Program-made: the position numbers and the translations under genes
Shown: positions 17,161 to 43,735 of the stretch, in pieces
Numbering within the stretch: the stretch's first letter is position 1
How the letters are laid out: every line of letters starts with the position of its first letter
Notes under the pieces: model-generated
The model's database searches: none
What the model was told of the DNA's origin: nothing
The model's input: the letters and a program-made list of their open reading frames with translations, nothing else
From: Gemmatimonadota bacterium
Lineage (GTDB): Bacteria; Gemmatimonadota; Gemmatimonadetes; Longimicrobiales; Gaopeijiaceae
Assembly: GCA_009838975.1 (NCBI GenBank)
Contig: VXQO01000075.1
Coordinates: forward strand, 1 to 49,493
DNA: 49,493 bases
Reading direction: 5' to 3'

Positions 17161-17488
17161 GGCGGTTAGATTCTACAGCTGGCGGTACCTTAGACCGCTC
17201 CGAGGTTGGAAGAGAATGTGAAACCGGCTATGGTAATCCGGGTGTTGGTGCGAACACCGACAGGCGCTTCGCTCCCATAGTGGGCGGAAGAGTTGCAACT
17301 GCCGGGATTTCTCAACAGGCGACGGCGGCAGAAATGCATCGACAATAGACGCGATCAGTGCCAGTAACGGAACGGTCGTCAAGACAAGGTAGCATTGTAG
17401 TGTCAGTCTCACATTCCGGCTCAAGTGGCGTAGTTGGATGGAAGAGACAGTTTGAACCCTTGCATGGATTCGATTGGAGGTTCAGCGA

Positions 17489-17674
17489 ATGGCGAAGGTA
17501 CTGAATGAAATCCTAGATTCATTCTACAAGAAGCTCTTGGAATCCGACACCGTGGATGAGGAAACTATGAGGGAGTTGCGCGCCCTCTTTTCTTCTGGCA
17601 AGAAACCGAAAGCGAACGATTTCGTGGCGATATTCGAGAAGGCGGCGAAGGAGGGCAGCCATGATTCAGATTGA
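17489..17674 (+). CDS. Small 61-aa protein, partner of the SMC-like ATPase
   Basis: Start ATG 17489 is chosen because GGAGG sits at 17476-17480 and the sequence then reads as a compact acidic/basic helical protein (LNEILDSFYKKLLE, then DEETMRELRALFSSGKKPKAND). Its stop overlaps the ATPase start at 17661 by 14 bases, implying co-translation. No family recognised. A small helical gene coupled to a large ATPase suggests a subunit or regulator, but that is inference. Confidence 0.7.
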   Translation: MAKVLNEILDSFYKKLLESDTVDEETMRELRALFSSGKKPKANDFVAIFEKAAKEGSHDSD

Positions 17675-20102
17675 GTCGGTGGTGATTCGGGAACTTAGAG
17701 GAATCCGGGAGCTCGAGATCAAGCCCGACCGAAAGACCTTCGTCGTATCCGGGCCCAACGGATCTGGAAAGAGCGGCGTGGTGGACGCCATAGAGTTCGC
17801 TCTGACTGGCGATATGTCGCGCCTTGCTGGTAAGGGGACACAGGGTCTGAGCGTGAGGAGTCACGGTCCCCACGTGGACCGGCGGCATGATCCTGCCTCG
17901 GCTGAGGTTGAGCTCCAGTTCTACATTCCGGACCTCGACAGAACGGCAGTCCTGACAAGGAACGTGGGGAATCCGAGACATTTCACTCTCGAGCCCGACG
18001 ACTCCCAAGTGCGAGCCCTCGTCCAAGAGGTAGCGGATCATCCGGAAATGACGTTATCGCGTCGGGAGATCATCAAGTACATACTTGCCGAGCCAGGGAC
18101 TCGATCAAAGGAAATCCAGGCGCTTCTGAAGCTCGAGGCAATCGGTCAGACCCGTGCTGTAATGAAGACGATGTCCAACAAGCTCGCCATCGTGGCGCGC
18201 CAAGCGCGGAATGCGGTCGCGGATTCCGAGGAATCGCTCTGTCGTCATCTTGACGTTGCAACATTGGAGCCGGAGGCAGTACTCGAAGCGATCAATCAGC
18301 ACCGCAACATGCTCGGGCTCGTTGAGATCGATGAGTTGCGCCCGGAAACGGACGTGAGCGCTGGCGTCTTGGAAGCGGCTGGCGGCGCAGGATTCAATCA
18401 AGCAGCCGCACTTCGGGATGTGGAATCGCTTCAGAACGCGGTAGCTGGTTTGGCGGCACTGGGTCAAGACGAGGTGGAGATGGTGCTGCGTGACCTCACC
18501 AACTTGGAGGATGATCCGGCCCTTCTCCATGCGGTCACGCGTCGCTCCTTCGTTGAGAGCGGTCTAGGGTTGATCGACGGAGAACAATGTCCGCTGTGCG
18601 ACACCGCGTGGGAAGATGAAGAGGCGCTCGTAACCCATTTGAGAGCGAAGCTCGCAGCGGCGGATGAAGCGGATGCGATCCAGCAACGGCTTCGGAGAAA
18701 CGGAGCCGAGATAGCCAATCAGGCGCACCATCTCTCGGGCCTCGTAGATGCCGTTCACCCTCTCGGTGGGGCCTACGGCGCCGATGGGTTCGGTGGGGAC
18801 CTCGAGACATGGTCGCTGGATCTCAACTCCTTTGCTGCCAAACTGACGACCGTTGACTCGATCGCAGGACAGCGAAACCGAGTGGAAGACGGGTGGAGCC
18901 GCCCACCGGAGTTATTGGAGGACCAGCTTGAAGCCCTCCGAACGTCGATTCTGGCTAAGCCTGATCGGAGCGAGAAGATCGCAGCGCAGACCTTCTTGAC
19001 GCGCGCCCAAGATCGCCTTTCTGCTTGGCAGAGCACGCGGCTCGCGAAGAAGCAGGCGGAAGCGGCGGTCGCGACCGGGAGGGCTGCATACAACACGTAC
19101 TGTGAAGTGGCAGACGATTACCTGCGCGCGCTGTATAGAGCGGTGGAAAACGATTTTAGTTCGCATTATCGGGAGATCAATGCGGAAGACGAAGGTGGAT
19201 TCACAGCACGGCTAGAACCGGCGGAAGGTTCCCTCGATCTGGAAGTAGCCTTTTATGACCAGGGCATGTACCCACCACGCGCCTACCACAGCGAGGGACA
19301 CCAAGACGGGATGGGACTCTGCCTCTACCTAGCGCTTATGCAGCGTCTGCTGGGCAACCGGTTCCGACTTGCCGTGCTCGACGATGTCGTGATGTCCGTA
19401 GATCGCGGGCACCGAAAGGAGATCTGCCGACTGCTGAGGGAACGATTCCCCAATACGCAATTCATCATCACAACCCATGACAGAGTTTGGACGAAGCAAA
19501 TGCAAACCGAGAAGCTCGTCCGGCGCAAGGAGACCATGGTCTTCAATAGGTGGAGCGTCCAAACAGGTCCGATCGTGCAGGAGATGGCAGGGACTTGGGA
19601 TGCCATCGAGTCAGATCTTGACAGGGGTGAGGTAGATGTTGCCGCAGCGCGCTTGCGGCGACACATGGAGTACGTAGCAAGCGAGCTGGCGGAGAGGCTC
19701 GGAGCGCAGCTGCGATTCCGAGGCGACTATTCGTACGACCTGGGGGAGCTACTACCACCGGTTGTCAGCCGCTATGGAAAGCTGCTAAGAAGCGCCGCAA
19801 ACGTAGCACGTAGGTGGGGGAATGAGGAAGCCAAGGAGAAGGTCAAGGGCTTGACGACCGCATGGGCTAACGCACGATCCGCCTATGACGACGAGAACTG
19901 GGTCGTCAACAGGGCTGTTCACTACAACGAGTGGGCAACGTTCACTGCGGCGGAGTTTCGGGAAGTGGTGGAGGCCTTCAAGAGGCTGCTCGCGGAATTG
20001 CAGTGTTCCTCATGCGACTCGTGGCTGGAGGTCACCCCAAGGAAGGGCGCTTCAGAGGTCCTGCAGTGCCGATGTGGGTCTACGATGCTGAAGTTGAGGT
20101 AG
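17661..20102 (+). CDS. SMC/Rad50-like AAA ATPase with C-terminal HEPN-like region and zinc ribbon
   Basis: 813 aa. Walker A GPNGSGKS at 31-38 near the N-terminus; a central region of about 400 residues with a CPLC motif at 310-313 placed like a zinc hook; an ABC-signature-like SEGHQDGM at 544-551; Walker B RLAVLDD at about 569-575; and H-loop TTHD at 604-607. After the ATPase is a helical domain of about 170 residues containing NRAVHYNEW near 750-758, vaguely HEPN-like but without a clear Rx4-6H motif, then paired Cys at 782/785 and 803/805 (zinc ribbon). Architecture resembles DNA-sensing defence ATPases (Septu, Lamassu, RloC kin), but I cannot assign it to one. Confidence 0.8.
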   Translation: MIQIESVVIRELRGIRELEIKPDRKTFVVSGPNGSGKSGVVDAIEFALTGDMSRLAGKGTQGLSVRSHGPHVDRRHDPASAEVELQFYIPDLDRTAVLTRNVGNPRHFTLEPDDSQVRALVQEVADHPEMTLSRREIIKYILAEPGTRSKEIQALLKLEAIGQTRAVMKTMSNKLAIVARQARNAVADSEESLCRHLDVATLEPEAVLEAINQHRNMLGLVEIDELRPETDVSAGVLEAAGGAGFNQAAALRDVESLQNAVAGLAALGQDEVEMVLRDLTNLEDDPALLHAVTRRSFVESGLGLIDGEQCPLCDTAWEDEEALVTHLRAKLAAADEADAIQQRLRRNGAEIANQAHHLSGLVDAVHPLGGAYGADGFGGDLETWSLDLNSFAAKLTTVDSIAGQRNRVEDGWSRPPELLEDQLEALRTSILAKPDRSEKIAAQTFLTRAQDRLSAWQSTRLAKKQAEAAVATGRAAYNTYCEVADDYLRALYRAVENDFSSHYREINAEDEGGFTARLEPAEGSLDLEVAFYDQGMYPPRAYHSEGHQDGMGLCLYLALMQRLLGNRFRLAVLDDVVMSVDRGHRKEICRLLRERFPNTQFIITTHDRVWTKQMQTEKLVRRKETMVFNRWSVQTGPIVQEMAGTWDAIESDLDRGEVDVAAARLRRHMEYVASELAERLGAQLRFRGDYSYDLGELLPPVVSRYGKLLRSAANVARRWGNEEAKEKVKGLTTAWANARSAYDDENWVVNRAVHYNEWATFTAAEFREVVEAFKRLLAELQCSSCDSWLEVTPRKGASEVLQCRCGSTMLKLR

Positions 20103-20425: not shown

Positions 20426-20866
20426 CTATCCCGCTGGACCCGGAAACACCTCGAAACCCATCACAGCGAAATCGCTGTCAAAAGTAAAGATGCGAAGAAT
20501 CCCGAGGCGCTTCATCGCGGCCGCACAAAGGGCATCATGATAACTGATGGCGTGATCTGAATACCGCGTTAGTATGTCCCGCGCTTCCTTTTCGTCGTCC
20601 GGCTCGAAACGATACAAACGAACGCCGTGGCTGCCTCTGAGGAAGTCGAAATGCTCCAGAGCCTTGCCCACGGACGAACCATACCGAACTCGAGTGAATA
20701 CTTCATGAGCCGTGACGTCAAGAGTACACCATACGATATCATTACTATTGGAATAGAAACTCACTGCATCGGCATGGAACTGCTCGATTGGATTGTGAAG
20801 GGCAATGACAGCGGAAGAATCGATCAGCGCCGCTCTCTCATACCACTGACGGATCATTGCTGTCAT
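20426..20866 (-). CDS. PIN-domain toxin-like ribonuclease
   Basis: 146 aa. PIN acidic residues are in place: D16 in ALIDSSAV, E55 in TAHEVFTR, D111 in HDALCAA, and D130/D132 in TFDSDF, which would coordinate Mg2+ for RNA cleavage (VapC-like). ATG 20866 is chosen since family similarity begins there; it overlaps the upstream 77-aa gene by 29 bases. Upstream of this ATG the frame is open but unlike the family. Probably the toxin of a toxin-antitoxin pair, in an operon behind a ClpP-fold protease. Confidence 0.85.
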   Translation of the reverse strand: MTAMIRQWYERAALIDSSAVIALHNPIEQFHADAVSFYSNSNDIVWCTLDVTAHEVFTRVRYGSSVGKALEHFDFLRGSHGVRLYRFEPDDEKEARDILTRYSDHAISYHDALCAAAMKRLGILRIFTFDSDFAVMGFEVFPGPAG

Positions 20867-21071
20867 CGGCGCGCGCAACTGCGCCCCCAGGCGGAACCCC
20901 AGGAACCAGCCGATAGAGTTCTCCGTCGACAACTCTATAGGTGCCTGGCGATAGCCACCCCTCCTCCATTTCTCGCATGTCTCTATTTGGTTCACGTTCG
21001 TCGAACAAGGCCTCTTCCTGTTCCCCAGTAGACAGAGCCATTTGGAATTCAATCAGTTCCATTGACATCAT
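20838..21071 (-). CDS. Small acidic antitoxin-like protein
   Basis: 77 aa, acidic, beginning MMSMELIEFQMALSTGEQEE and with a C-terminal half rich in Gly/Pro/Asp. ATG 21071 has AGGGAG upstream and overlaps the stop of the protease gene (ATGA). It precedes and overlaps the PIN gene, the usual antitoxin position. No DNA-binding motif recognised. Antitoxin role is inferred from position and size. Confidence 0.6.
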   Translation of the reverse strand: MMSMELIEFQMALSTGEQEEALFDEREPNRDMREMEEGWLSPGTYRVVDGELYRLVPGVPPGGAVARADDSNDPSVV

Positions 21072-22177
21072 TTCGTCACTCCCTGTGGCTGTTTGTTGTG
21101 CACCCAGCCCTGTGATTTTACTTCTACCTGTGTTTCTCTTGGCATGCCAGGAACCAGTGGGATGGGTTGCCCTACGGGCACTTGTATTTGAACATTCGCT
21201 GGTGGCTTAGCTACTTGGCGCACAACGCCAGCCGTTTCGAATAGATAGGAGCGCACAGTGCTCTCCAATACCGCTCCGACGAATCTGAACGGAAACTCAG
21301 TATTGCCATTCAGGAGGTTTGCCAAATAGAACTTCCTCCGGAGATTGAATTGGTCCTCATATGCTCGAAGTACGTGGTCCAATGCATCTGAGAGTTCACG
21401 AGAAGCGAATTCGACGCGGTCGCCAAGAATCTCCTTGGCCTCATGTCGATTGATCATGTGAAGATGTGAGAAGAACTGGGTCGTCAATGCCTTCACTATT
21501 TGTTGCACACCCTCCCCGTCGATTGGATGAAGATTGAGTAGGTTCACGGCTAGCTGTTTGATCTGCTGCAATACTCGATTGACATTGCCCAGTGCAAGCG
21601 GATGGACTTCGGTGGTAAGACGTTGCAGGAGCGGAACTGCCTGAACTGGTAAAGACGATGACTCAGTCTCGTCTTCTCTAGTACCATCCAATTGCTCCAG
21701 TATGAAGGAACGATAGGCTCGCACATCCTCTACGCTGATTGCCATGCCAGACGTCGGATTGGCAGGGTCTCTTGGGTTGAATTGGTTGCCCGTGCTAGGA
21801 TCAATCGGACTAAGCTCTGAAAGATTTGTCAGAATAACGCGATTGGCACCGAGCACGACAAGCGTTCCGGAACTATGACAACGGAATGGCACCAGAACTT
21901 CAAAATCGGGGTCGAACTCCCTAACTAGACTCACTAGAGGCCACACGGCGTTGGTATCTCCCCCCCGCGTATAGAGGAGGAGATCTATCCCTTCCAGCGA
22001 ATCACTCTCCTTGAGGACCCGGAACAGGGCTTCCTTCACGTCCGCTTGAAAATGCGTCGAGAGTCCAGGCAGCGCAGGCTCTGATTGGCGATCAAAGTTC
22101 AGGAAGCAAACCAGTCGCCGGCCGGGTCGAAGTTCCTCGACCTTCTGTAGCAGAGGCTTCCTGCCCTCGTAGTTCAT
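21068..22177 (-). CDS. SDH-type (ClpP-fold) serine protease-like protein
   Basis: 369 aa. The core resembles SDH proteinase/SppA-like ClpP-crotonase folds: LLLYTRGGDTNAVWPLVSLV at about 67-84, then CHSSGTLVVLGANRVILTN at 100-118 with the candidate nucleophile Ser102/103, and LSELSPIDPSTGNQF at 119-133. The family is named for degrading serine dehydratase, but many members occur in mobile regions. C-terminal region is Pro/Val-rich. No signal peptide; cytosolic. First gene of an operon with the antitoxin-like and PIN genes, four-base overlap. Confidence 0.75.
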   Translation of the reverse strand: MNYEGRKPLLQKVEELRPGRRLVCFLNFDRQSEPALPGLSTHFQADVKEALFRVLKESDSLEGIDLLLYTRGGDTNAVWPLVSLVREFDPDFEVLVPFRCHSSGTLVVLGANRVILTNLSELSPIDPSTGNQFNPRDPANPTSGMAISVEDVRAYRSFILEQLDGTREDETESSSLPVQAVPLLQRLTTEVHPLALGNVNRVLQQIKQLAVNLLNLHPIDGEGVQQIVKALTTQFFSHLHMINRHEAKEILGDRVEFASRELSDALDHVLRAYEDQFNLRRKFYLANLLNGNTEFPFRFVGAVLESTVRSYLFETAGVVRQVAKPPANVQIQVPVGQPIPLVPGMPRETQVEVKSQGWVHNKQPQGVTK

Positions 22178-22802: not shown

Positions 22803-23365
22803 ATCGACGAATTCAGCGTGTGGGCCTCCGTGACGTGTGGAGACACGAGGCTCTCGACTTCACCAAATGGTTGGAGGAGAACATCGACGTCCTCAACGAG
22901 GCTACCGACCTTCAGCTCAGCGGTGTCGAACGTGAGCAGGCCGTCGGCGCCTTCAGCGTCGACCTCATTGCCGAAGACCAGGACGGTCGTCCGGTGGTCA
23001 TCGAGAACCAGCTCGAGCAATCACGACCACCTTGGTAAGCTCCTCACGTATCTCGTAGGAATTGAGGCGAGGAAAGCCATCTGGATCGTCGCGGATCCTC
23101 GCCCGGAGCACATGGGTGTGGTCACCTGGTAGAACGAGAGTTCTTCCGCCGACTTCTACCTGCTCAAGCTCGAAGCCATCCGGATCGGTGACTCTGAGCC
23201 CGCCGCACTCTTGACTCAGATCGTAGGGCCGAGTGAGCAAGCACGTAAGGCCGGTGCGACGAAGAAGCAGATGGCTGGGCGAGAACGACAACGCTACCGC
23301 TTCCTCCACGGGTTGCTGCAGCGTGCGAAGGACAAGACCCAGCTGCAGGCGAACAGTCGGCGCCG
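22800..23365 (+). pseudogene. Decayed DUF4268-family gene (N-terminal part)
   Basis: Homologous to the gene at 27107. Relative to it, a one-base deletion near codon 3 and a five-base deletion near 23018 shift the frame, and codon TTG has become TAG at about 23131 (reading VTW-stop). Similarity ends near 23365, so the DUF4268 domain is lost. The conserved piece includes GVEREQAVGAFSVDLIAED and VVIENQLE, the nuclease-like part. Clearly dead; useful as a record of an old duplication. Confidence 0.85.
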
Positions 23366-23524: not shown

Positions 23525-24361
23525 ATGAAAGTATTCATCAGTTGGTCGGGGCACCCAAGCAAAGAGCTTGGCGAAGCTGTCCGGGACTGGATCCCCAAAG
23601 TGCTTCAACGCGTCAAGCCGTACTTCACTCCGGCAGACATCGACAAGGGAGCACGTTGGTTGACCGATATCGCAAAGGAACTCGAAGAGTCGAAGATCGG
23701 TATCCTTTGCGTGACGCGGGACAACATTCACAGTGATTGGATGCTCTTCGAGGCCGGAGCTCTGTCTAAGAGCTTAGATGATTCTCGTGTTTGTCCAGTA
23801 TTGTTTGGTATCAGCAGCACCGATCTTGCGGGGCCGCTTGAGCATTTTCAAGCGACAGAATTCAAGAAGAAAGACATACGTCAACTGCTTGATGTCATCA
23901 ACGACGCGATCGGCGAGAAGAAGCTGGCATCTGGAACACTTGATGCTGTCTTCGAAAAGTGGTGGCCCGATTTGGAGACGCAGATCGGCCACATCCTCGC
24001 TGAGACGGGCGAGACGGACGAGACGGACGAGCCGATTCGGTCGGACAGGGAATTGCTGGAGGAAGTCCTTGAGCTCAGCAGAAGCATGACGTCACGGCTC
24101 ATGGTGCGTCAAAAGCTATCCCCAGCCGCACTCCGGGATCTGCTTCGTAGTTATATCGCATTACACAATAGCCAGATTAAGAGAGAAGGAGGCTATCAGG
24201 CCACATTAGATTATTTGCAAGACATGCGCAAGCCAGTGTCATATATATTGCGACGGTCCGGGAGAGGAGATAAACACCTAGATAAGTTGTTGAGTGAGTT
24301 CAGAGACCTTTCGTATTCGGTGTCAGAACCGGGTGAAGAGGATGGCGATCTCCCATTCTAG
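23525..24361 (+). CDS. TIR-domain protein (candidate NADase defence effector)
   Basis: 278 aa. The N-terminal TIR domain starts MKVFISWSGHPSKELGEAV, with YFTPADIDKGARW and IGILCVTRDNIHSDW, then FEAGALSK, which contains the candidate catalytic Glu76 (after W72). Bacterial TIR proteins often hydrolyse NAD+ during abortive infection. Residues about 150-278 are an unassigned helical region, perhaps a sensing or oligomerising part. GGGAGG lies just before the ATG. It lies between two DUF4268-related copies and has no cognate partner gene of known type. GC is lower than the flanks (many AT-rich codons near 24150-24260), a sign of transfer. Confidence 0.85.
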   Translation: MKVFISWSGHPSKELGEAVRDWIPKVLQRVKPYFTPADIDKGARWLTDIAKELEESKIGILCVTRDNIHSDWMLFEAGALSKSLDDSRVCPVLFGISSTDLAGPLEHFQATEFKKKDIRQLLDVINDAIGEKKLASGTLDAVFEKWWPDLETQIGHILAETGETDETDEPIRSDRELLEEVLELSRSMTSRLMVRQKLSPAALRDLLRSYIALHNSQIKREGGYQATLDYLQDMRKPVSYILRRSGRGDKHLDKLLSEFRDLSYSVSEPGEEDGDLPF

Positions 24362-26871: not shown

Positions 26872-27109
26872 GGATCGGCACGAAGGGAGGTTGACCGGGT
26901 TCCGCGACCGGTGGGCCGTATGCCAAGGGCCCTCGTCGAGCGGCGCCGGCGACGCCGGAACCTGCGGGAAGCGGACTCGATCGTCGGGTTTCCTGGCGGC
27001 CATTGACACGTGACATGCGTCGCAAACAGTATCGCTCCGGCGCGCGGCCGCCGCCCTCAGGTCTAGGCACGCGCAAACCGAGCTTCAAACGCCAGGAGTG
27101 GGACAGATG
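26872..27109 (+). repeat. Island leader repeat, copy 4
   Basis: From GGATCGGCACG through GGAGGTTGACCGGG to CCAGGAGTGGGACAGATG. Carries the same promoter spacing and ribosome site as copy 3 and drives the better-preserved DUF4268 gene. It sits between the frameshifted nuclease-like module and the DUF4268 gene. From 26612 to 26871 I see no gene. Confidence 0.75.
27003..27032 (+). promoter_or_regulatory. Putative sigma70-type promoter in leader copy 4
   Basis: TTGACA at 27003-27008 and CAGTAT at 27027-27032, 18-base spacing as in copy 3. It is the likely start signal for the DUF4268 gene at 27107. Confidence 0.5.
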
Positions 27110-28025
27110 ATCGGACGAATTCAGCGTGTGGGACTCCGCGACGTGTGGAGCCATGAGGCTCTCGACTTCACTCGATGGCTAGAGGAGAACGTCGACGTCC
27201 TCAACGAGGCTACCGACCTCCAGCTCAGCGGTGTCGAACGCGAGCAGGCTGTCGGCGCCTTCAGCGTCGACCTCATTGCCGAAGACGAGGACGGTCGTCC
27301 CGTGGTCATTGAGAACCAGCTCGAGAAGAGCAATCACGACCATCTCGGCAAGCTCCTCACCTATCTCGTGGGAATCGAGGCTAGGAAAGCCATCTGGATC
27401 GTCGCGGACCCTCGCCCCGAGCACGTGGGTGTGGTCACCTGGTTGAATGAGAGTTCTTCCGCCGACTTCTACCTGCTCAAGCTCGAAGCCATCCGGATCG
27501 GTGAATCTGAGCCCGCAGCGCTCCTGACTCAGATCGTGGGACCGAGCGAGGAAGCACGTAAGGCAGGCGCGACGAAGAAGCAGATGGCTGGGCGAGAACG
27601 ACAACGCTACCGCTTCTTCGAGGGGTTACTGCAGCACGCGAAGGAAAGGACCCAGCTGCACGCGAACATCAGCCCCAACAAGGGAAGCTGGGTCGGGGCA
27701 GGGGCAGGCATTGGCGGCGTGGGTTTCAACTACGTGGTTCGCCAGCGTGACGCTCGGGTCGAGTTGTACATCGACACTGGGGACGGCGACAGAAACCCAG
27801 CAGTTTTTCGAGGCGCTCTCACTCAAGAAGGAGAGCATCGAAGCAGTGTTCGGGTTCCCGTTGGTGTGGGACACCAAGGAAGGCCGACGGGGATGCCGGA
27901 TTCAGAAGACCCTCGCCACGGGCGGGTACCGGGATGAAGACGCCTGGGAGGCTGTCTACGAGGACTTGGCCGATGCGATGGCCAGGTTCGAGTCTGCGCT
28001 GAAGCCGCACCTGCAGGGGTTGTAG
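27107..28025 (+). pseudogene. DUF4268-family PD-(D/E)XK nuclease-like gene, single frameshift
   Basis: ATG 27107 follows AGGAG. First frame (230 codons): helix, then AFSVDLIAED and VVIENQLEKSNHDHLGKLL, an Asp...Glu-x-Gln pattern (D55, E69, Q71) typical of the nuclease-like N-terminus of DUF4268 proteins. An extra C at 27797 (CCC run) moves to a second frame reading QQFFEALSLKKESIEAVFG through ALKPHLQGL, completing a DUF4268 domain of normal total length, about 305 aa. Only one lesion, so it may be intact in the organism. A membrane protein gene follows 17 bases later. Confidence 0.8.
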
Positions 28026-28731: not shown

Positions 28732-31700
28732 ATGAAGGAGCTTTTCCAATGGGTGCCGTGGTTCCGGGAACTGACTGAGGCGGTGGGGGAGGGCCGCCGA
28801 GAGGGCCTCGTTCAGCGGGCGAAGAACGTGGATTGGGCTGGCGGTAAGTGTGCTGTCCTTGATCAAGGTGAGGACATGGCCGACCCGCTGACGTTTTTCT
28901 ACCATCTCGCGGCGGTCGCGGGTGGCACGCCGAAGAAGAGGGAAACCGTCTACGCCAGCGTAGCGAAGGTGTTCGGGCTCGAGAGCGACCTCGACTACAC
29001 TCGCGAGGACGGTTTCATCTTTCCGATTCCGCCGGGATTGGTCGTGCTTTTCAACAACACGGGAGCTGATCCGCGCCTTCTGTGGAAGATGTTCGATCAG
29101 GCGCGCGCCTTCGACGGCACATCGCACCGCGCCGACTACGCCGACACCTTCGCCAGGACGCTGCAGATCAAGGGAGTCGGGGTCCCGAAGCTGACGCAAA
29201 CCCTCTTCCTGATCAATCCGAGGGCCTTTCTGCCCTTTGATGCGATGGCCGTACTGCCTTTGGGTATCGGCAGACTCGCGAAGCCGCCAGCCAAGATGTC
29301 CTGGGACGAGTACGTCGACGAAATGAGGACGATCCGCGCCGCGTTCCCCGGGTGCCACGGCTATGAGGTCAACGTGATCAGCTACCTGTGGACGAGCGGC
29401 CACTATCGGCGCAAAGGCAATCGGTGGTATCAGATCGGCACGAATGAAGACAGGTGGCGGCAGTTCCGGGACAATCACTGGGTTCACCACGGTGGGCAGG
29501 GCGACATCCGCCAGACCGATGAAGGCGAGGTGTTACGAGATCCCAAACAGGATGACCGGTTTGACGAACCCGAACCGGGCGATGTCGTCCTCGTTCACAC
29601 GGGGACACGGGAAGGGCGCGGGATTGGGATCGTGTACCGCAACGACTACGGCGACCAGCCACATCGGAACGACCGGATCCACGTGCTGTGGGTGAACAAG
29701 GAGCAGGCGCCTCTGCCCACCGACCTGCCGACGGTTGCGTTTTCGAGGGCGGACGACGCCTCGTACGAGGCCTTCGCCAAGAGCGACGCGTACTCCGCAA
29801 CCTTGAACTTGTTGGAACCGCTCGAGGCCAAAACGGGAGGATCCGGTTCCGGGGGAAAGAACATCAACACGCTTTACGGGGAGTTCTACCGGCCGTTGGT
29901 GGCGCGGCTGCGCCGGAAGGGTGTGCAACCGGGAGTATGGCGGGGTCGATGGCGATCGTTCCACACCGGATACCCAGGTGCCATCAACGGCACGGGGTTG
30001 GACGACGGAAAGGCGAAGGTATTCCTGTCCTTCAGAGGGGCCGGCAGCGCACAACGTTTCAGGGCGCTGCTTTCCCACCGCAAGGAAATCGATGAGAAAC
30101 TGAAGGAGACCGCCTCGTGGCTTGACGAGAAGCAAGGAAGTTGGAGGAACACCGTCCTGCTGGAAAGGGACAGACCGTTCAGCCTGACAGGTCCTGAGGA
30201 AGACCTGGAGGCGACGCGGGTGTGGATGACAGACAGCCTGCTTGCGCTGAAGAGCGCTGTCCAGCCACACCTGGACCATGTGATGCAGGAGCCCAGCCCT
30301 GAACCTCCGTCGCCCGCCTCCCTGGTTCAACGCCTCACAGATTGCGGCCTCTTGTTCCCGCGCGAACTCGTCGCCAACTACATACTCGCCCTTCAAACCA
30401 AGCGGTTCGTCATACTGACGGGTATCTCGGGAACCGGGAAAACACAGATCGCCAAAGCCTTGGCAGAGCTCTACGGACCCGCACGACAAGCGGTGGTGGG
30501 GAAGATGCCGGAGGACGCATTTGGAATCGAGGTTAATCCCTACCAGTTCAGGTATTCCAGGATAATGATCCCCGTCGCCGTGGCAGCCAATCTCGACCTG
30601 CTTGGCCCGGACGCACCACTATCCAAACGCAAGATCCAAGTGCGCTATCCGGCGGGTCAGGTAGCTCTGACCTACAATCAGAATCGGCAAGGCGCGACAG
30701 CGCTGCTATTTCGAGGCGAGTTCAAGGAGTGGTTCCGCTCAAACGTCAACGCGGGTGACCAAATCTCGCTGCGCGTGCACGAGGGCGAGTCGCCCGACTC
30801 CGATCAACTTGAGATCGGACTTTCCGAGACCGAAACCGTCGAAGCGCCCGTCCGCAACTACGAAGTCGTCCCTGTCCGTCCCGACTGGGTCGACAATCGC
30901 GGGCTACTGGGCTACCTCAACCCTCTGACGAACGAGTACTCGACCACCCCGTTCCTCGACCTCCTCCTCCGAGCCCGTGCCGAAGAACGGAGAGCCGCAG
31001 ACGCGGGAGAGGAGCCCCACCCTTTCTTCGCCATTCTCGACGAGATGAACCTGGCCCGAGTCGAACACTATTTCTCGGATTTCCTGTCGGCGCTGGAATC
31101 GGGCGAGGGTATCCCGCTTCACACGAACGAAACCATCGAGAGTGGGGAGTCCGAGTCAGGCCCGCGGGTTCCGCAAGAATTGAAGGTGCCCGGCAACGTC
31201 CTTTTCACGGGCACCGTGAACGTGGACGAGACGACCTACATGTTCAGTCCAAAGGTGCTCGACCGCGCGTTCACGATCGAGTTCGACCACGTCGACTTGG
31301 AAGGATTTACGACGGGGGACGCCAGTGTCGAGGCGCCCGGGCTGGATCTCGGCGGCGTCGACGCTCTCGATTTCCTGCCGTCCGGCCGGTCGGATGACGT
31401 CGGATGGAAGCCCAGCCGCGACGACTGGGCGGAGTTCAGCCAGGAGACACCCGGACACCACAAGGCCCTGCTCCAACTCCACAGCATCCTGGAACGACAG
31501 CACCGGCATTTCGGATACCGGGTCGCAAACGAGATCGCCCGCTTCGTCAACCTGGCCCGCGAACAAGCCGGCGCGGACGTCTCGGACGCGGCGGTCGACG
31601 CAGCCTTCGACTTGGCGCTCCTGCAGAAGGTCCTCCCGAAGTTCCACGGAACCCAGCAGGAGCTGCAGTCGATTCTCGAAGAGATCTTCCAGTTCGCCGT

Positions 31701-31962
31701 GCACGGCAGCGGCCGCGTTCCAAAGAAGGACCAGAAGGTCGAGCTAGATGACTGGAGAGTGGTCAAGGGCCGCCTAGTGGCCAAGTCCAAGACCCAGTCA
31801 CCCTCCGACGACACCCCTGGAGAGGGAGACGATGCGGACTCCGACGCTGCGGATCCTGCCGACGCCGACGCAAAGACGCCGGCCTACCCGCGCACCGGCG
31901 CGAAGGTCCTAAGAATGCTGCACCGCCTGCGGGACCGCGGCTTCACGTCGTTCATCGAGTGA
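28732..31962 (+). CDS. McrB-like GTPase/ATPase restriction subunit with DUF4268-like region
   Basis: 1076 aa. C-terminal AAA+ motor: Walker A GISGTGKT near 563-570, McrB signature Walker B FFAILDEMNLARVEHYFSDF near 765-785, and NVDETTYMFSPKVLDRAF near 828-845. The N-terminal part is long: a winged/alpha region (to about 230), then a region with RFDEPEPGDVVLVHTG (PUA/EVE-like guess), then residues about 380-517, which I read as a DUF4268-like domain (YGEFYRPLVARLRRKGV, then AQRFRALLSHRKEIDEKL). Type IV restriction enzymes of this kind translocate on modified DNA. GGAGG lies 7 bases before the ATG; the McrC-like gene follows 7 bases after the stop. Confidence 0.85.
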   Translation: MKELFQWVPWFRELTEAVGEGRREGLVQRAKNVDWAGGKCAVLDQGEDMADPLTFFYHLAAVAGGTPKKRETVYASVAKVFGLESDLDYTREDGFIFPIPPGLVVLFNNTGADPRLLWKMFDQARAFDGTSHRADYADTFARTLQIKGVGVPKLTQTLFLINPRAFLPFDAMAVLPLGIGRLAKPPAKMSWDEYVDEMRTIRAAFPGCHGYEVNVISYLWTSGHYRRKGNRWYQIGTNEDRWRQFRDNHWVHHGGQGDIRQTDEGEVLRDPKQDDRFDEPEPGDVVLVHTGTREGRGIGIVYRNDYGDQPHRNDRIHVLWVNKEQAPLPTDLPTVAFSRADDASYEAFAKSDAYSATLNLLEPLEAKTGGSGSGGKNINTLYGEFYRPLVARLRRKGVQPGVWRGRWRSFHTGYPGAINGTGLDDGKAKVFLSFRGAGSAQRFRALLSHRKEIDEKLKETASWLDEKQGSWRNTVLLERDRPFSLTGPEEDLEATRVWMTDSLLALKSAVQPHLDHVMQEPSPEPPSPASLVQRLTDCGLLFPRELVANYILALQTKRFVILTGISGTGKTQIAKALAELYGPARQAVVGKMPEDAFGIEVNPYQFRYSRIMIPVAVAANLDLLGPDAPLSKRKIQVRYPAGQVALTYNQNRQGATALLFRGEFKEWFRSNVNAGDQISLRVHEGESPDSDQLEIGLSETETVEAPVRNYEVVPVRPDWVDNRGLLGYLNPLTNEYSTTPFLDLLLRARAEERRAADAGEEPHPFFAILDEMNLARVEHYFSDFLSALESGEGIPLHTNETIESGESESGPRVPQELKVPGNVLFTGTVNVDETTYMFSPKVLDRAFTIEFDHVDLEGFTTGDASVEAPGLDLGGVDALDFLPSGRSDDVGWKPSRDDWAEFSQETPGHHKALLQLHSILERQHRHFGYRVANEIARFVNLAREQAGADVSDAAVDAAFDLALLQKVLPKFHGTQQELQSILEEIFQFAVHGSGRVPKKDQKVELDDWRVVKGRLVAKSKTQSPSDDTPGEGDDADSDAADPADADAKTPAYPRTGAKVLRMLHRLRDRGFTSFIE

Positions 31963-31969
31963 GCGACCC

Positions 31970-33691
31970 GTGAACGGTTCCGCCGAAATCGAACGGACTT
32001 CGCGAGTCATCGTCCACGCGTATCGCTCGCGCGAGTCAGCCGAGAAAACAGACCACGGTTACCGCTTGCAGAGTGAAAGGCGGTGGGTCGTCGAAGGGGA
32101 CGATCAGGCCCTCACGCAGATAGCGAATCAGCTGCCGAAGGCGAATCGGACGTGGCTGGGAAAACAGCGAAACGCCCTCATCCTCAACCTCGTCAACTCG
32201 GTCGGCACCCTCGAACTACCCCACCTCGGGACCCTAGATCTGGTCTCGCGCAAGTTCGACGAAGACCAGTTCGACGCCATGCTCCGCGACCTGACCGAAT
32301 CGGCCACTACCCTCCCGTTCTCAGCCAACGAAGCCGCCGCCGGCCGCTACTCCGTCAGCACCGTCCCCCGCGACGAGGTCCTCTACCACGCTTTCGTCTA
32401 CCTGCGCTACATCCTCTCGGACAGAGCGCCGGAGGAAGTACGCCTGCTTCCGGCCCTCGAGATGATCGTCAGGGAGCCGCACCGCCTGTGGCGCAGCCAC
32501 CGCCGCGACGTCCGCATCGAAGCCATGACGCGAGTGGACGCGCACACTCCACTCGATCTCGTGACCCGGCCCGGGATGTCCGTGGTGGGGTCGTCACTCT
32601 CACCCTCCGGAGCGAGGCTCGCCGAGCGACTGCGCTGGCGTCTCCCGGAATTCGTTTCGGAGCGGAAGATCAGGTCGACAACCGATACCGCCGAGAACCG
32701 GTTTGTGAAGGCCTTCATCGGGCAGGCGCGGACGATCATCGGTCGCATGCGGTCCGCGGTGAGCTCCCCGGAGCCCGACGCGTTCCGGCGGAACCTGCTG
32801 CGGGATTGCGATCGCATGGAGTCGTCGCTGATGCCGATCGCGCGGCACAGCATGTGGGAAGAGGTCGGACGAATGGTGCGGATCCCCTTTTCGTCCACCG
32901 TGCTTCAGCGACGGCAGGGGTATCGCCGCGTGCTCCAGCACTTCTCCCGGATTCGCCTTGATCCGACGATTCCGCTCGACAGGGACGGCATGCGCGACCT
33001 ACTCGAGCTCAAGAACATCGCGCTTCTGTACGAGCTTTGGACCTTCTTCCGGGTGGTTGACGAGATTTCGGCGGTGCTGGGGAGGCCGCCGGTGCGATCG
33101 GGGCGGCTGGCCACCGGTCCCTTCCAGACCGCTTTCCCAGCTGGCGGGACCTACGAATGGGATCCGGGCGTGCGCCTGGTGTACAATCAGCGCTTCTCCA
33201 GGTCATGGAAGAGACAGCGGCACTCCTACTCCGTGCCCCTGATTCCCGACATCGCTCTCCGGGTCCCCGACGGGCCGAAGGCTCGCCTCCACCTGTTCGA
33301 CGCGAAGTTCCGGGTCCAGGCGCTCACCGACGTGGGATTTGCCGCGGACGATAAGGACGCCGACGACGACAAGATCAGAGAGCGGGCGGGCTCGTTCAAG
33401 CGTGCGGATATCTACAAGATGCACGCCTACCGCGACGCGATTCCGGAAGCGCGGTCGGTGTGGGTCCTTTACCCGGGTGGGGAGTTTCGGTTCTTTGGCA
33501 TCCCGGGCCGTGGCGTTCCGGTTGGGCACCCGGCCGTTTCTTCCCCCGAGGAGTTGCCCGAGAAGCTCATGGGGGTCGGCGCGATTCCGCTTGTCCCGGT
33601 CGTTGGGGTAGGTGACGGCCACGGGCCAGGAACGGCAGCGGCGAATAGCGGCGTGTTGCGAGCAACGTTGGAGCGGATGCTCCAGCAGTAG
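31970..33691 (+). CDS. McrC-like nuclease partner, DUF2357/PD-(D/E)XK
   Basis: 573 aa. N-terminal DUF2357-like region (RLRWRLPEFVSERKI, then TAENRFVKAFI), and a C-terminal PD-(D/E)XK nuclease: SVPLIPDIALRVPD with the Asp near 427, then LHLFDAKFRVQ with the D-x-K near 443-445. Such proteins stand in for McrC beside McrB-like ATPases. Start is GTG 31970, 7 bases after the McrB stop. The two genes would form a type IV restriction system cutting modified phage DNA. No frame damage seen. Confidence 0.83.
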   Translation: MNGSAEIERTSRVIVHAYRSRESAEKTDHGYRLQSERRWVVEGDDQALTQIANQLPKANRTWLGKQRNALILNLVNSVGTLELPHLGTLDLVSRKFDEDQFDAMLRDLTESATTLPFSANEAAAGRYSVSTVPRDEVLYHAFVYLRYILSDRAPEEVRLLPALEMIVREPHRLWRSHRRDVRIEAMTRVDAHTPLDLVTRPGMSVVGSSLSPSGARLAERLRWRLPEFVSERKIRSTTDTAENRFVKAFIGQARTIIGRMRSAVSSPEPDAFRRNLLRDCDRMESSLMPIARHSMWEEVGRMVRIPFSSTVLQRRQGYRRVLQHFSRIRLDPTIPLDRDGMRDLLELKNIALLYELWTFFRVVDEISAVLGRPPVRSGRLATGPFQTAFPAGGTYEWDPGVRLVYNQRFSRSWKRQRHSYSVPLIPDIALRVPDGPKARLHLFDAKFRVQALTDVGFAADDKDADDDKIRERAGSFKRADIYKMHAYRDAIPEARSVWVLYPGGEFRFFGIPGRGVPVGHPAVSSPEELPEKLMGVGAIPLVPVVGVGDGHGPGTAAANSGVLRATLERMLQQ

Positions 33692-37065: not shown

Positions 37066-39906
37066 TCACTGTTCGATCTCGAGCGTCAACCCAAGCTGCC
37101 TCGCCGCTTCCTTCATGGTCTTGAGCGCCGCATCGTTCTCGTTCAACGCAGCTCCCTCAAGGAGCACCATTTCGAACTGCACACCGAGCCTCAGCCTCTT
37201 CAGCTTCATCCGCACGGCAGGGCCGACAAAGCAACGGAAAAGCTCGCCCCAGTTCTCGACTGGAATCGCACCGCGGACGACGAAGCGCCGCACGGTCCCC
37301 TTGGCACCGGTATCCCCCGCCGTCGATGTGTCACTGCCTTCCCGGGTGGCCGTGCCAGCATCCGTGCTCGCTGCTGCCGTCCCTTCCCCCGAAGCACCGT
37401 CGCCGCCGGCAGTCTTCTCGCCGTCCTGGGCCTTCGCGGGTTCAGGATCGAACGGCGGGATGACCCAAAGGCCGTCTTCGCTAGCGTCGAGTGGTATCGA
37501 CTGCTTGCAATGCCGGCTCAGGAGGGCTGAGATGCTTCCACCGCGCCCGATTCCCACAAGCCCGTCAGCGCAGGCTTGGCTCAGTCCAGCAGTCACGGCC
37601 TCCCTCGTCGCAATCATCGGCTTGTCGCTGAACCGTAAGAAAGCCTGGACCGCGTCTCGAAGGCGCAGCCCCCCTTCCTTCGGAATCATACCAGTGTTCT
37701 CTAGGGTAACCGGGCCGACCCGTCGGAGAATCCACTCCTCGTCCTCCACCAGAGTCTTCCACATGTAGGCGAGATGTTCGTGGAACTTCCGCCGCGCATC
37801 CGGAAGGGAACATGATTCCACCACCTGTCCGCGCACTCGAAGGGCAACCGTATATGCGGACCCAAGCGCCTCCAGCGCTGCTCGGCGACCATCGTATAGA
37901 CGCTTCTCAAGGTCCCTACGCTGCTCTTCGTCCAGCTGATCCCAATAGTCCGCGCGCACGTTTTCCAAAGCTGACTGCTCGCGATGGGCTTGCCGCAATC
38001 TGGTGAGACCCCGCTTGGTTCCCACCATGAAAAGGAGCGTGTTACGGTAAAGGCGATCCTTCCCACCGCACCGCGTGCTAATGGACGTCACGTGCTCCTG
38101 GATGGCGGCTTTCGCGCCGTCGTTCTCATCCCAAGCTAACGACGGCGGGAGGATTAGCAGCGTAATCGCCTTCTGCTCAGGCAAGTCCTCCGCAGGATTG
38201 ACGACGACGCGCCACGTCGCCCCGGCCACGGCAGCTCCAGGTGACTCAGCCCGGAGGTTCTTGATGATCTCTTCGCTGAAGTTCTCCTTCACACTCTGTT
38301 GGCGATACTGAACGACTAACTTGTTGAGCGTCGGCTTGGTGCCGAACCAATACCGCTTGCCCAAGCTGCCTGCGGCCGCCATGTGAAGATAAAAGCAGCG
38401 GTTTTCCAGTTCCAACAGTGCTCCGTCGGCGTAGTTCCAGTTCAGGCCCTGCCGTGAGCAGGCAAGCTTCAGGTCCTTAGAGCTGAATCCGCTCCGGCCG
38501 CCCTGGCCGCCAAACGAACCAAGCAGTATTGCCGACGCCATTCCCTCTCCGATGCCTTCGCGCCGGTAGTCGCCGCCCCGTTCCTCATCGAAGATGCCTG
38601 AGTTAGATCTCTCACCGATGACGTCGGCAGCGGCGACGGACTGGTACGCCGGTCCCCACAGGCGCGTCAGCGCAGCCTGAACCGCGTCCACGGACCAGCG
38701 GACGTGGCACGGCTGGATCAGGTGCTGCGTCTGTGTATTCCCACGGCGGCGATTCCAGAGATCGCCCACGATACTTGCCAGCAACCGTAGCACACCCCTT
38801 GTTCGCTGAAAGTCCGGATGACTTCCCCAACGCGTGTAAAGCGCATCGATGAGTAGGGGATGGAAGGGATAGGCCCGCATCAACTGTACGCGGTATCTGT
38901 TCTTCGTAGCGCCCGAAGGCACCTCACCGGAGTGGGACGCGTACATGTTCTGATAGACTTCAGCGACCGTCTCGGGGTAGTCCGGCTCGTGCTGGGGCGC
39001 GATCGAGTCGAACAAGCGGGAGCGCACGACATCGTAGATCTCCTCGTCCGCGACCGGCTTAACGTCCGCCCCAAGGCGCTGGAAGCGCTTTTCCAGAGTC
39101 ACGAAAGCCTCTTGGCCTTTCTCGCTCTGCGCGACCTCGAACTTACTTGCTGGCAGGGTGGCGACCACGACCGCGCCGGGCACTTGCTGTACGGCCTCTG
39201 TCAGCTGCTGGACGAAGGAGACCGTCTGATCGGCTAGACTCGTGTGTCCAACCGGCACTGCAGCCGCTCCTACACAATAGTCGGCCAGCTCGTCCAGAAG
39301 AATCAGACATGGTGACGCAGCTTGCAGGATCTCGAAGAAGAGCCCTTGGGGAACTCGCTGGCTCTCGTCGTTCGCCCGCACGCGTTCATATAGAGCCTTC
39401 CCGCCGAGCTGATACGCCAATTCTCCCCACAACGTGTGCAGGTGAACTCCGTCGGCGACCCTACGTCCCTGGGTCGCATCACACGTTTGGTTCGTGAAGA
39501 CCGCGACACCCTTTACCGTCTCGGGAAGCCGTCCGCCGATGGCTTTCCGAAGGTCCTCGGCGTGAAGCGAACCATTCAGGTGATCCGCGTGCCTCGCTAG
39601 ATGCCAAAGAGCCACCAGAGTATGTGTCTTACCGCCCCCAAAGCCCGTCTGCAGACTGATGATGCGGTCGCCGGTTTCGCCTCCGCGACGCAGCGCCCTT
39701 GCGACCCGACTCAGAACCGTAGACAGTCCGGTCGTCAGGTAGGTCTTTCGAAAGAACTCGTCAGGATCGACGTAAACCTCAGGAGCGCTGCCCCGCACCA
39801 CAGCCCAGAGGTTGGCGGCGAAAACGGCCTCGGCGAGGCGTCCCACACGAATGTCCTCGTGAGGTGTCGCGACCGCGTACCAAGGTTTGAGTATTTCACT
39901 TGTCAA
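37066..39906 (-). CDS. DUF499 family ATPase, defence-associated
   Basis: 946 aa AAA-type ATPase (COG1483/DUF499). Walker A GFGGGKTHTLVALWHLA near residue 88, Walker B CLILLDELADY near 197-207. A long C-terminal part includes a linker rich in Thr/Gly/Ala/Asp (about 840-890), then a final globular domain. Start is TTG 39906, preceded by GGAGGGTGA; it lies 6 bases after the end of the DUF1156 reading frame. DUF499 proteins occur beside DUF1156 methylases and SNF2 helicases in anti-phage gene clusters. Confidence 0.88.
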   Translation of the reverse strand: MTSEILKPWYAVATPHEDIRVGRLAEAVFAANLWAVVRGSAPEVYVDPDEFFRKTYLTTGLSTVLSRVARALRRGGETGDRIISLQTGFGGGKTHTLVALWHLARHADHLNGSLHAEDLRKAIGGRLPETVKGVAVFTNQTCDATQGRRVADGVHLHTLWGELAYQLGGKALYERVRANDESQRVPQGLFFEILQAASPCLILLDELADYCVGAAAVPVGHTSLADQTVSFVQQLTEAVQQVPGAVVVATLPASKFEVAQSEKGQEAFVTLEKRFQRLGADVKPVADEEIYDVVRSRLFDSIAPQHEPDYPETVAEVYQNMYASHSGEVPSGATKNRYRVQLMRAYPFHPLLIDALYTRWGSHPDFQRTRGVLRLLASIVGDLWNRRRGNTQTQHLIQPCHVRWSVDAVQAALTRLWGPAYQSVAAADVIGERSNSGIFDEERGGDYRREGIGEGMASAILLGSFGGQGGRSGFSSKDLKLACSRQGLNWNYADGALLELENRCFYLHMAAAGSLGKRYWFGTKPTLNKLVVQYRQQSVKENFSEEIIKNLRAESPGAAVAGATWRVVVNPAEDLPEQKAITLLILPPSLAWDENDGAKAAIQEHVTSISTRCGGKDRLYRNTLLFMVGTKRGLTRLRQAHREQSALENVRADYWDQLDEEQRRDLEKRLYDGRRAALEALGSAYTVALRVRGQVVESCSLPDARRKFHEHLAYMWKTLVEDEEWILRRVGPVTLENTGMIPKEGGLRLRDAVQAFLRFSDKPMIATREAVTAGLSQACADGLVGIGRGGSISALLSRHCKQSIPLDASEDGLWVIPPFDPEPAKAQDGEKTAGGDGASGEGTAAASTDAGTATREGSDTSTAGDTGAKGTVRRFVVRGAIPVENWGELFRCFVGPAVRMKLKRLRLGVQFEMVLLEGAALNENDAALKTMKEAARQLGLTLEIEQ

Positions 39907-39912
39907 TGCCGC

Positions 39913-40242
39913 TCACCCTCCTTCGCCGAAGAACAGATCTCTCTGTGCGGTTCCGTACGCCGCACTCTTCCCTTCCGATCGTAGTGTCTGGCGTTCGCCA
40001 AGCAATGCGCTCACCAGTTTCCAATCGTCCAAATCGCGAGGGAGCACCTCGAACAATGCCTGCGCCAGTTTCCAGAACGGATCATCCTCCAAAAGGTCAC
40101 GTCGGGCGAGGTATTCGACTAGGTCCCTACGCTTTTCCTCCTTCCAAAGGAGCATGCTGCGATGTAGCGCGTCGATGTGTGGTGGGTTCCGATCCATGCC
40201 GAGGCCACGGCGGCCCGCTCGATCCTCAAGAACGGCAAGCGC
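39913..40242 (-). pseudogene. Out-of-frame C-terminal piece of the DUF1156 methylase
   Basis: Reads ALAVLEDRAGRRGLGMDRNP, then HIDALHRSMLLWKEEKRRDL and FWKLAQALFEVLPRDLDDW, the usual C-terminal helical region of DUF1156 proteins. It joins to the main frame by skipping one base at 40243. An internal ATG at 40197 could in principle allow separate translation. Stop at 39913, 6 bases before the DUF499 TTG. Confidence 0.75.
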
Positions 40243-42889: not shown

Positions 42890-43218
42890 ACCGCCACTCC
42901 CCCCACAATGTCCGAACCCACTAAGGGAGCGGGCCGACCCGGACCGAGCTCGTCGAGAAACCTCGAAGCGATGGTGGGGCAGTGCCACGGATTCCTACCG
43001 CAGACCTCCGCGCCCATTGTGAGCGTGAGAGTGCAAACCAACATCTGGTCGGCAATTGTCCCCTCTGGCAGCAAGCGGGCCACCCGTCGCATCAGCGCGA
43101 ACGTCTTGCCGGTTCCGCGACCGGCCAAGACACGTATCGATGTGTGGTCCAGACCTGCGATGTTCCGTGCCGGACCGGCCAGGCCGTCATCCCACCTGAA
43201 TGCGGCGTCGCTATTCAT
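42886..43218 (-). pseudogene. UvrD-like helicase remnant (internally deleted)
   Basis: 110 codons. The first 65 read as the N-terminus of a UvrD/Rep-type helicase: FRWDDGLAGPARNIAG, then IRVLAGRGTGKTFALMRRV (Walker A; Gly-Arg replaces the usual Gly-Pro) and MLVCTLT. Everything after, including all other helicase motifs, is gone; about 40 C-terminal codons follow. Both ends keep operon coupling: ATG overlaps the SNF2 stop by 8 bases and TGA overlaps the methylase GTG. That points to a deletion inside an ancestral gene of normal size. It may still make a short peptide. Confidence 0.7.
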
Positions 43219-43735
43219 CGGCCTTGCTCTCCAGCCTCTCTTGGATCTCCACTTCCTGGCCTCGGCGCGCCCAGTCGTTCTCCTCGACGAGGTACTGAAT
43301 CTGCCGGTACAGCATCTCCGGGGTCAGCTTTGGGATCGGATCCTGAATCGTCCGTAGTCGCGGCCGCTCTCCCTTGCAGTGGGTGACCACGTAGAGCCAA
43401 GCGCGCTTGCCAAGCTGGTTCAGCTTGTCCAACTCGGGACTGGTAAGGATGATTATCCCGGACTGTGCACGACCCTTGACCTCGATGAATCTCTTCTCGC
43501 CGTCTTGACCCTCGGAACGGATGTCGTAGTGCTCTCCGTCTCGGCTTACATCTGTTGGCAGCCAGCCTCGACTGCGCTCGTAACGCATGGCCACATCCAT
43601 GGCGATGGCCTCGACTTTGTCGTCCCGGTGCATTGGAAAACCCTTTGACGGCCGGCCGTCCCCTTCTTCCAGCGTCGCCACGGGAACCGGAGCAATTATA
43701 GCCTCCGTAACGAGATCGGGGAGGTTGGCAGACAG
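43211..43735 (-). pseudogene. Out-of-frame DUF3883 C-terminal piece of the SNF2 helicase
   Basis: Reads LSANLPDLVTEAIIAPVPV, then AMRYERSRGWLPTDVSRDGE, HYDIRSEG, FIEVKGRAQSG and IILTSPELDKLNQLG, the DUF3883 domain with its nuclease-like D...ExK arrangement (Asp in YDIRS, EVK). Found at the C-terminus of DrmD-like helicases. Joined to the main frame by skipping one base at 43736. The stop at 43211 overlaps the start of the UvrD remnant. Confidence 0.8.

What the first reader, a model, noticed from the sequence alone, without database searches (positions are those of the whole stretch)
17489..20102. Two-gene SMC-like ATPase unit with hook-like CPLC, HEPN-like tail and zinc ribbon
A 61-aa helical protein is translationally coupled to an 813-aa Rad50-like ATPase. 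Beyond the ATPase there is a 170-residue helical domain with NRAVHYNEW and a terminal zinc ribbon. This is not a Septu, Lamassu, Gabija or PARIS layout that I can recognise, and it lies in a defence island. It could be a compact DNA- or RNP-sensing suicide system with the toxin built into the ATPase tail.
Basis: partly seen in the sequence, partly recalled or inferred. Interest (0 to 1): 0.66.

Follow-up and report, generated by a model that had tools for sequence, protein, structure and literature searches.

The report
Two-gene Rad50-like suicide nuclease module
A tiny gene and a large DNA-sensing motor gene with a built-in, probably RNA-cutting tail form an undescribed pair that recurs in defence islands and plasmids across bacteria and salt-loving archaea, and probably acts as a self-harm alarm against viruses or plasmids.

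Summary
A 61-aa ORF (17489-17674) overlaps an 813-aa ATPase (17661-20102) with a Rad50-type head, a CPLC hook, a helical tail and a C-x2-C/C-x-C zinc ribbon. No Pfam, NCBIfam or PADLOC model covers the whole protein. The pair is real and widespread. A GTDB scan confirmed 248 relatives. In all 80 examined the small gene, or a recognisable remnant, lies directly upstream, usually with an ATGA overlap.

In 56 non-redundant ATPases the tail keeps R666-x3-E670...N750-x3-H754 and four Cys without exception. Arg-x3-Glu...His is the mutationally proven catalytic triad of the anticodon nucleases RloC and PrrC. Profile alignment places R, E, N and H on their RloC counterparts, and HEPN folds head the structural re-ranking of the tail model.

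Best reading: an RloC-like, DNA-triggered suicide RNase built on a separate, LmuB-like ATPase lineage, with an obligate small partner. It is not a member of RloC (spacing and profile differ, extra gene) or of Lamassu (no LmuA). Neighbours are strongly defence-enriched. Activity, trigger and RNA target are inferred. I found no description in the papers held; key papers were not held.

The parts
17476..17480 (+). GGAGG ribosome-binding site of the small gene
   Evidence: sequence
17489..17674 (+). 61-aa helical partner protein, obligately linked
   Evidence: present or recognisable in 80/80 relatives; median 58 aa; dN/dS about 0.10
17648..17654 (+). AAGGAGG ribosome-binding site of the ATPase gene, inside the small gene
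   Evidence: sequence
17661..20102 (+). 813-aa ABC-type (Rad50/SMC-like) ATPase with hook, helical nuclease-like tail and zinc ribbon
17751..17774 (+). Walker A GPNGSGKS (res 31-38)
   Evidence: G31, N33, G34, G36, K37, S38 invariant in 56
18588..18599 (+). CPLC hook (res 310-313) at the coiled-coil apex
   Evidence: C310, P311, C313 56/56; model
19290..19307 (+). ABC signature SEGHQD (res 544-549)
   Evidence: 56/56
19377..19385 (+). Walker B LDD (res 573-575); Asp in place of catalytic Glu
   Evidence: D574, D575 56/56
19581..20003 (+). HEPN-like helical tail domain (res 641-781)
19656..19670 (+). R666-x3-E670, first part of the RloC/PrrC-type triad
   Evidence: triad defined in PMC2610378
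19908..19922 (+). N750-x3-H754, remainder of the triad (inside NRAVHYNEW)
20004..20075 (+). zinc ribbon C782-x2-C785...C803-x-C805
   Evidence: 56/56, also kept in distant clade B

Best explanation
An autonomous two-gene anti-invader module that works like the anticodon nuclease RloC. The Rad50-like head with its short hooked coiled coil watches for invader DNA (ends, hairpins or replication intermediates). ATP-driven engagement releases a C-terminal HEPN-type RNase with an Arg-Glu-His triad (R666, E670, H754, helped by N750), which cuts RNA, most likely tRNA, and halts translation in the infected cell. The zinc ribbon probably helps bind the RNA or fix the domain. The co-translated 58-61-aa protein is a stoichiometric subunit of the ATPase part that keeps the complex off or sets its trigger. 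Shown computationally: the two-gene linkage, the invariant residues, the Rad50-type head, the HEPN-type fold ranking, the defence and mobile context, purifying selection. Inferred: RNase activity, tRNA target, DNA trigger, role of the small protein.
For: Tail: R666, E670, N750, H754 and C782/785/803/805 are invariant in 56 non-redundant proteins; R666 and E670 are the only invariant charged residues in the 202-residue tail. RloC/PrrC triad Arg-x3-Glu-...-His, each Ala mutant of RloC dead, hook mutants hyperactive (PMC2610378); [quoted passage not shown] hhalign of residues 586-781 against RloC-type tails: probability 80%, running from the end of the ABC domain into the helix with R on R and E on E; the reversed-tail control gives 0.2-0.4%. 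Separately VNRAVHYN aligns to VNAGSHHA with N on N and H on H (weak alone). VIA rows 1-4 for the tail are HEPN or HEPN-related. Head: Rad50 Z 27.4, Lamassu LmuB 9hqx Foldseek E 1.9e-11. Context: 192 PADLOC families matched in 110 flank ORFs against 20 in 110 control ORFs; frequent on plasmids; only one other close copy in 395 genomes of the phylum; phyla intermixed in the tree.
Against: No activity was tested. HEPN Z scores are modest for a helix bundle, and no Pfam HEPN model matches. E670-to-H754 spacing is 83 residues against 36-52 in RloC. I had no coordinates to check that R666, E670 and H754 meet in space. Two haloarchaeal copies lack the tail yet keep the pair.
Confidence: 0.55

Rival explanations
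1. The tail is a non-catalytic HEPN-like RNA- or protein-binding domain with a zinc ribbon; the pair is an SMC/Rad50-like DNA-binding or DNA-looping complex that blocks invader DNA without a built-in nuclease.
For: No canonical Rx4-6H; R-less HEPN families exist (PMC3710099); tail-less haloarchaeal copies keep the pair.
Against: All three RloC/PrrC triad positions are invariant in 56 proteins and the tail is under purifying selection; non-catalytic domains seldom keep an intact triad.
Confidence: 0.2
2. Plasmid-stabilising or conflict toxin-antitoxin pair, with the small protein as antitoxin for the tail.
For: Small gene first and translationally coupled; many copies on plasmids.
Against: The small gene is retained where the tail is absent (L010, L272), so its partner is probably the ATPase; the large conserved hooked ATPase exceeds what a toxin-antitoxin pair needs.
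Confidence: 0.1
3. A Lamassu offshoot: an LmuB-like sensor whose effector is supplied by another gene.
For: PADLOC LmuB model matches 56/56 (best 1.3e-29); LmuB fold match.
Against: No LmuA and no recurrent third gene in 33 loci; Walker B is DD, not the E-to-Q of LmuB (PMC10586767); an extra tail is present.
Confidence: 0.08
4. Housekeeping DNA-repair ATPase.
For: Rad50/SMC/RecF profile matches.
Against: Patchy presence, plasmid carriage, defence neighbours, inter-phylum mixing.
Confidence: 0.07

Closest known systems
RloC (and PrrC) anticodon nucleases
   Same: ABC head, CxxC hook on a coiled-coil insert (RloC), C-terminal helical domain with Arg-x3-Glu...His; [VI]N-x2-[SV]H motif in many RloC-type proteins
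   Different: ATPase fits SMC_N (71 bits), not AAA_13 (18.6, cut-off 36); SEGHQD signature; E-to-H gap 83 instead of 36-52; extra zinc ribbon; obligate small partner gene
Lamassu (LmuACB, ABC-3C)
   Same: LmuB-like SMC/Rad50 ATPase with hook; defence context; a small subunit
   Different: no LmuA effector gene; effector-like domain fused to the ATPase; Walker B E-to-D instead of E-to-Q; small protein about 58 aa with no family match
HEPN RNases with Rx4-6H (clade B relatives of this family)
   Same: fold type, conserved helix-2 Glu and catalytic-position His
   Different: catalytic Arg sits on helix 2 (R666) in the window clade; clade B has RNxxGxH and Gly at 666
Rad50/SbcC
   Same: head fold (Z 27.4) and CPxC hook
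   Different: no Mre11/SbcD partner next to it; much shorter coiled coil; nuclease-like tail
Septu, Gabija, PARIS ATPases
   Same: ABC-type head, partial PADLOC matches
   Different: no HNH (PtuB), TOPRIM or UvrD partner; hook and tail present

Membership tests
RloC | Rad50-like ABC head with CxxC zinc-hook coiled-coil insert | tested here: met
   C310-x2-C313 56/56, Rad50 Z 27.4
RloC | Arg-x3-Glu-x36-52-His triad | tested here: not met
   R666-x3-E670 and H754 invariant, but the gap is 83 residues
RloC | AAA_13-type ATPase profile | tested here: not met
   AAA_13 18.6 bits against cut-off 36; SMC_N 71.3
RloC | stand-alone single gene | tested here: not met
   small partner gene in 80/80 loci
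RloC | anticodon nuclease activity | not testable with these tools
   needs biochemistry
HEPN superfamily | HEPN helical fold | tested here: inconclusive
   VIA rows 1-4 are HEPN or HEPN-related, Z 5.4-6.0; Foldseek alone gave none with E<=0.001
HEPN superfamily | Rx4-6H motif | tested here: not met
   V/I/L-N-x3-H in the window clade; RNxxGxH only in clade B. PrrC/RloC are accepted HEPN with the Arg-x3-Glu...His triad
HEPN superfamily | conserved acidic residue in helix 2 | tested here: met
   E670 in all 56 of clade A and in the clade B rows
Lamassu | LmuB-like SMC/Rad50 ATPase | tested here: met
   (partial profile coverage)
Lamassu | LmuA effector gene in the operon | tested here: not met
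   none adjacent in the window; no recurrent neighbour in 33 loci
Lamassu | Walker B Glu-to-Gln | tested here: not met
   D575 in 56/56
Septu | PtuA ATPase with HNH PtuB partner | tested here: not met
   no HNH gene adjacent; PtuA hits partial
Rad50-Mre11 / SbcCD | linked Mre11/SbcD nuclease gene | tested here: not met
   none adjacent in the window; Metallophos hits in only 2 of 110 flank ORFs
APECO1_4465 ABC-HEPN family | sequence relationship | not tested
   reference sequence not available here; no match in 50,697 phage records, though that family is reported in prophages (PMC3710099)

The most novel reading that the evidence does not exclude
A new defence family in which homologous ABC-HEPN proteins carry the catalytic Arg at either of two places: on helix 2 as in RloC/PrrC (window clade, R666-x3-E) or in the canonical RNxxGxH motif (clade B, Gly at 666). 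This would link the PrrC/RloC and canonical HEPN active sites by Arg relocation, and would add an obligate 58-aa subunit unknown in either.
Probability: 0.35. Interest if true: 0.75.

Novelty: new variant of a known kind. Interest (0 to 1): 0.62.

Why it matters
It would add a widespread two-gene defence module (at least 248 relatives in GTDB genomes; also haloarchaeal plasmids) to the small set of DNA-damage-sensing suicide RNases, and give a testable explanation of how a Rad50-type sensor was wired to an RNase at least twice. The two-clade Arg placement makes the relation of the PrrC/RloC active site to canonical HEPN directly testable by mutagenesis.

Tried and rejected
Pfam on 56 tails and on clade B tails: no HEPN model. 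PDB sequence profile of the tail: nothing. Foldseek of the tail: only generic bundles; VIA on the same list put HEPN first. hhalign of tails against PF05168, HEPN_RiboL-PSP and Abi_C: no signal for the window clade, at best 7.6% for clade B against Abi_C. Canonical Rx4-6H reading rejected for the window clade. Repeated Arg/Gly-666 switching rejected: the tree shows one split only, with long branches. Phage origin: no hit in phage records; one full-length copy in an IMG/VR contig (L104). First genome-contig scan with the single protein found nothing; the alignment scan succeeded. A third conserved operon gene was sought and not found. Krishnan 2020 and Haudiquet 2025 were not held, so prior mention cannot be excluded.

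Full report
Observation. The window holds a 61-aa ORF (17489-17674) whose end overlaps the start of an 813-aa ATPase (17661-20102); both have good ribosome-binding sites. The window lies on contig C130 of a 4.5-Mb genome; the nearest relative of this protein is in a Gemmatimonadota bin (63% identity).

The head is Rad50/SMC-like. Pfam gives SMC_N 71 bits and AAA_23 46 bits. The AF2 model (mean pLDDT 86) gives Rad50 as best structural match (3qku, Z 27.4, 337 aligned, rmsd 5.8), and Salmonella Lamassu LmuB among Foldseek hits (E 1.9e-11). PADLOC's nearest models are LmuB (65 bits) and Mad3 (63 bits), both partial. The coiled coil is short and carries CPLC at its apex; C310 and C313 are invariant. 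Walker B reads LDD, so the catalytic Glu is Asp throughout.

The pair is a family. tblastn found 19 plasmid records in which one place covers at least 80% of the protein, mainly alphaproteobacterial (38-47%) and haloarchaeal (25-30%); in the annotated loci of those close relatives a 53-70-aa gene lies directly upstream. A GTDB scan with an alignment confirmed 248 relatives; 80 were kept, from Pseudomonadota, Actinomycetota, Acidobacteriota, Planctomycetota, Verrucomicrobiota, Chloroflexota, Bacteroidota, Bacillota, Spirochaetota, Omnitrophota and candidate phyla. The small ORF ends at the ATGA overlap in 71 of 80 and nearby in 6 more. The remaining three hold recognisable but masked, stop-containing or frameshifted small genes. 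The small proteins share a pattern (IxxxFLxxL...LxxLL...PKADDLVxIF) but only 25% mean identity; their pairwise identities track those of the ATPase (Spearman 0.68).

The tail. In 56 non-redundant proteins the invariant tail residues are W631, G636, P637, W646, R666, E670, W719, W747, N750, H754, F766 and the four ribbon Cys. The AF2 tail model (pLDDT 82) gave no Foldseek hit with E<=0.001. On re-alignment the top four rows were 2q00/2jpu (a Sulfolobus protein that I recall as belonging to the HEPN-related PaREP1 family), 2hsb (HEPN, AF_0298) and 1wty (which I recall as a HEPN-type nucleotidyltransferase partner), Z 5.4-6.0; MntA-HepT and Csm6 followed lower. These Z values are low for a helix bundle, so fold membership is supported, not proven.

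The active site. The tail lacks Rx4-6H. Arg-x3-Glu...His is, however, the catalytic triad of PrrC (R320, E324, H356) and RloC (R692, E696, H737); every Ala mutant of RloC's triad lost activity, and hook Cys mutants were hyperactive (PMC2610378). RloC is activated by linear DNA (PMC3874168). RloC-type proteins collected here carry a helix with R-x3-E (LRRxLE in several) and often [VI]NxxSH. hhalign of window-clade residues 586-781 against them gave 80% probability, continuing from the shared ABC end into the helix with R666 on Arg and E670 on Glu; tail-only and helix-only alignments gave 8-36%, the reversed control 0.2-0.4%. The NxxxH alignment came out in register but is weak alone. Much of the 80% rests on the shared ABC end.

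Two clades. Distant relatives (Streptomyces L012, Hymenobacter L011, Fibrella L200, Bacteroidota L184/L185, same-order L192) have RNxxGxH, the same Glu, and Gly at 666; all window-clade sequences inspected plus L008, L009, L013 and L183 have R666 and no Arg at the motif's Arg position. The tree places this on one split with very long branches, so it is one event at most and the alignment there is uncertain. Small upstream ORFs occur in most of these distant relatives too.

Tail-less copies. Halomontanus (L010) and Natrinema (L272) proteins are about 655 aa and stop after the head, yet keep a 58-aa partner gene. The small protein therefore probably serves the ATPase part rather than acting only as an antitoxin for the tail.

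Context. In 33 loci, 110 flank ORFs matched 192 PADLOC families (methylases, restriction enzymes, PD-Lambda-5, Druantia, Menshen, DRT, AbiE and others) against 20 for 110 control ORFs drawn from five of the genomes that carry the pair, mostly general helicase or regulator models. Integrases and resolvases recur. No family appeared in more than three of the 110, so there is no conserved third gene. The control comes from fewer genomes, and family counts overlap, so the contrast is qualitative. In Halorhabdus the pair sits between BREX-5 pglX and pglZ. Of 395 genomes in the phylum only one other held a close copy. Several ATPase frames are broken (L040, L051, L067, L097), as expected for a costly gene or for assembly errors.

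Conclusion. The pair works, most likely, like RloC: DNA-triggered release of a suicide RNase. It is not filed as RloC or Lamassu because tested defining features fail. The RNase step, the tRNA target, the trigger and the small protein's role are inference.

Noticed in passing
window 37066-46787 (-): Complete Hma-type (DUF499-centred) set: HmaC-like ATPase, HmaB-like methylase, HmaA-like helicase; the helicase end looks frameshifted at low coordinates.
   Followed up: partly
window 23525-24361 (+): TIR-TM defence protein (PADLOC E 5e-79).
   Followed up: no
window 27098-27937 (+) and 22820-23038 (+): PDC-S11 candidate defence gene and an apparent truncated second copy of it about 4.3 kb upstream.
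   Followed up: no
window 28732-33691 (+): PDC-M26A AAA gene (weak DUF4268-like stretch, P-loop) followed by a 573-aa ORF without a PADLOC match; McrBC-like layout.
   Followed up: no
window 20426-22177 (-): PIN-domain gene and a Clp-like SDH serine protease gene directly downstream of the pair on the opposite strand.
   Followed up: no
L010, L272: Haloarchaeal tail-less ATPases that keep the small gene: a natural separation of sensor from effector.
   Followed up: partly
L008: The pair is inserted between BREX-5 pglX and pglZ in Halorhabdus tiamatea.
   Followed up: no
L184, L185, L192: Clade B operons: upstream of the small ORF lies the end of what looks like a helicase-type protein (pattern recognised by eye), possibly a three-gene variant.
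   Followed up: partly
L104: Full-length copy in an IMG/VR contig of 50.6 kb, possibly a prophage or misclassified plasmid.
   Followed up: no
L025, L095, L040, L051, L067, L097: Copies with in-frame stops or frameshifts in the small gene (L025, L095) or ATPase (the rest); could be inactivation or assembly error.
   Followed up: no
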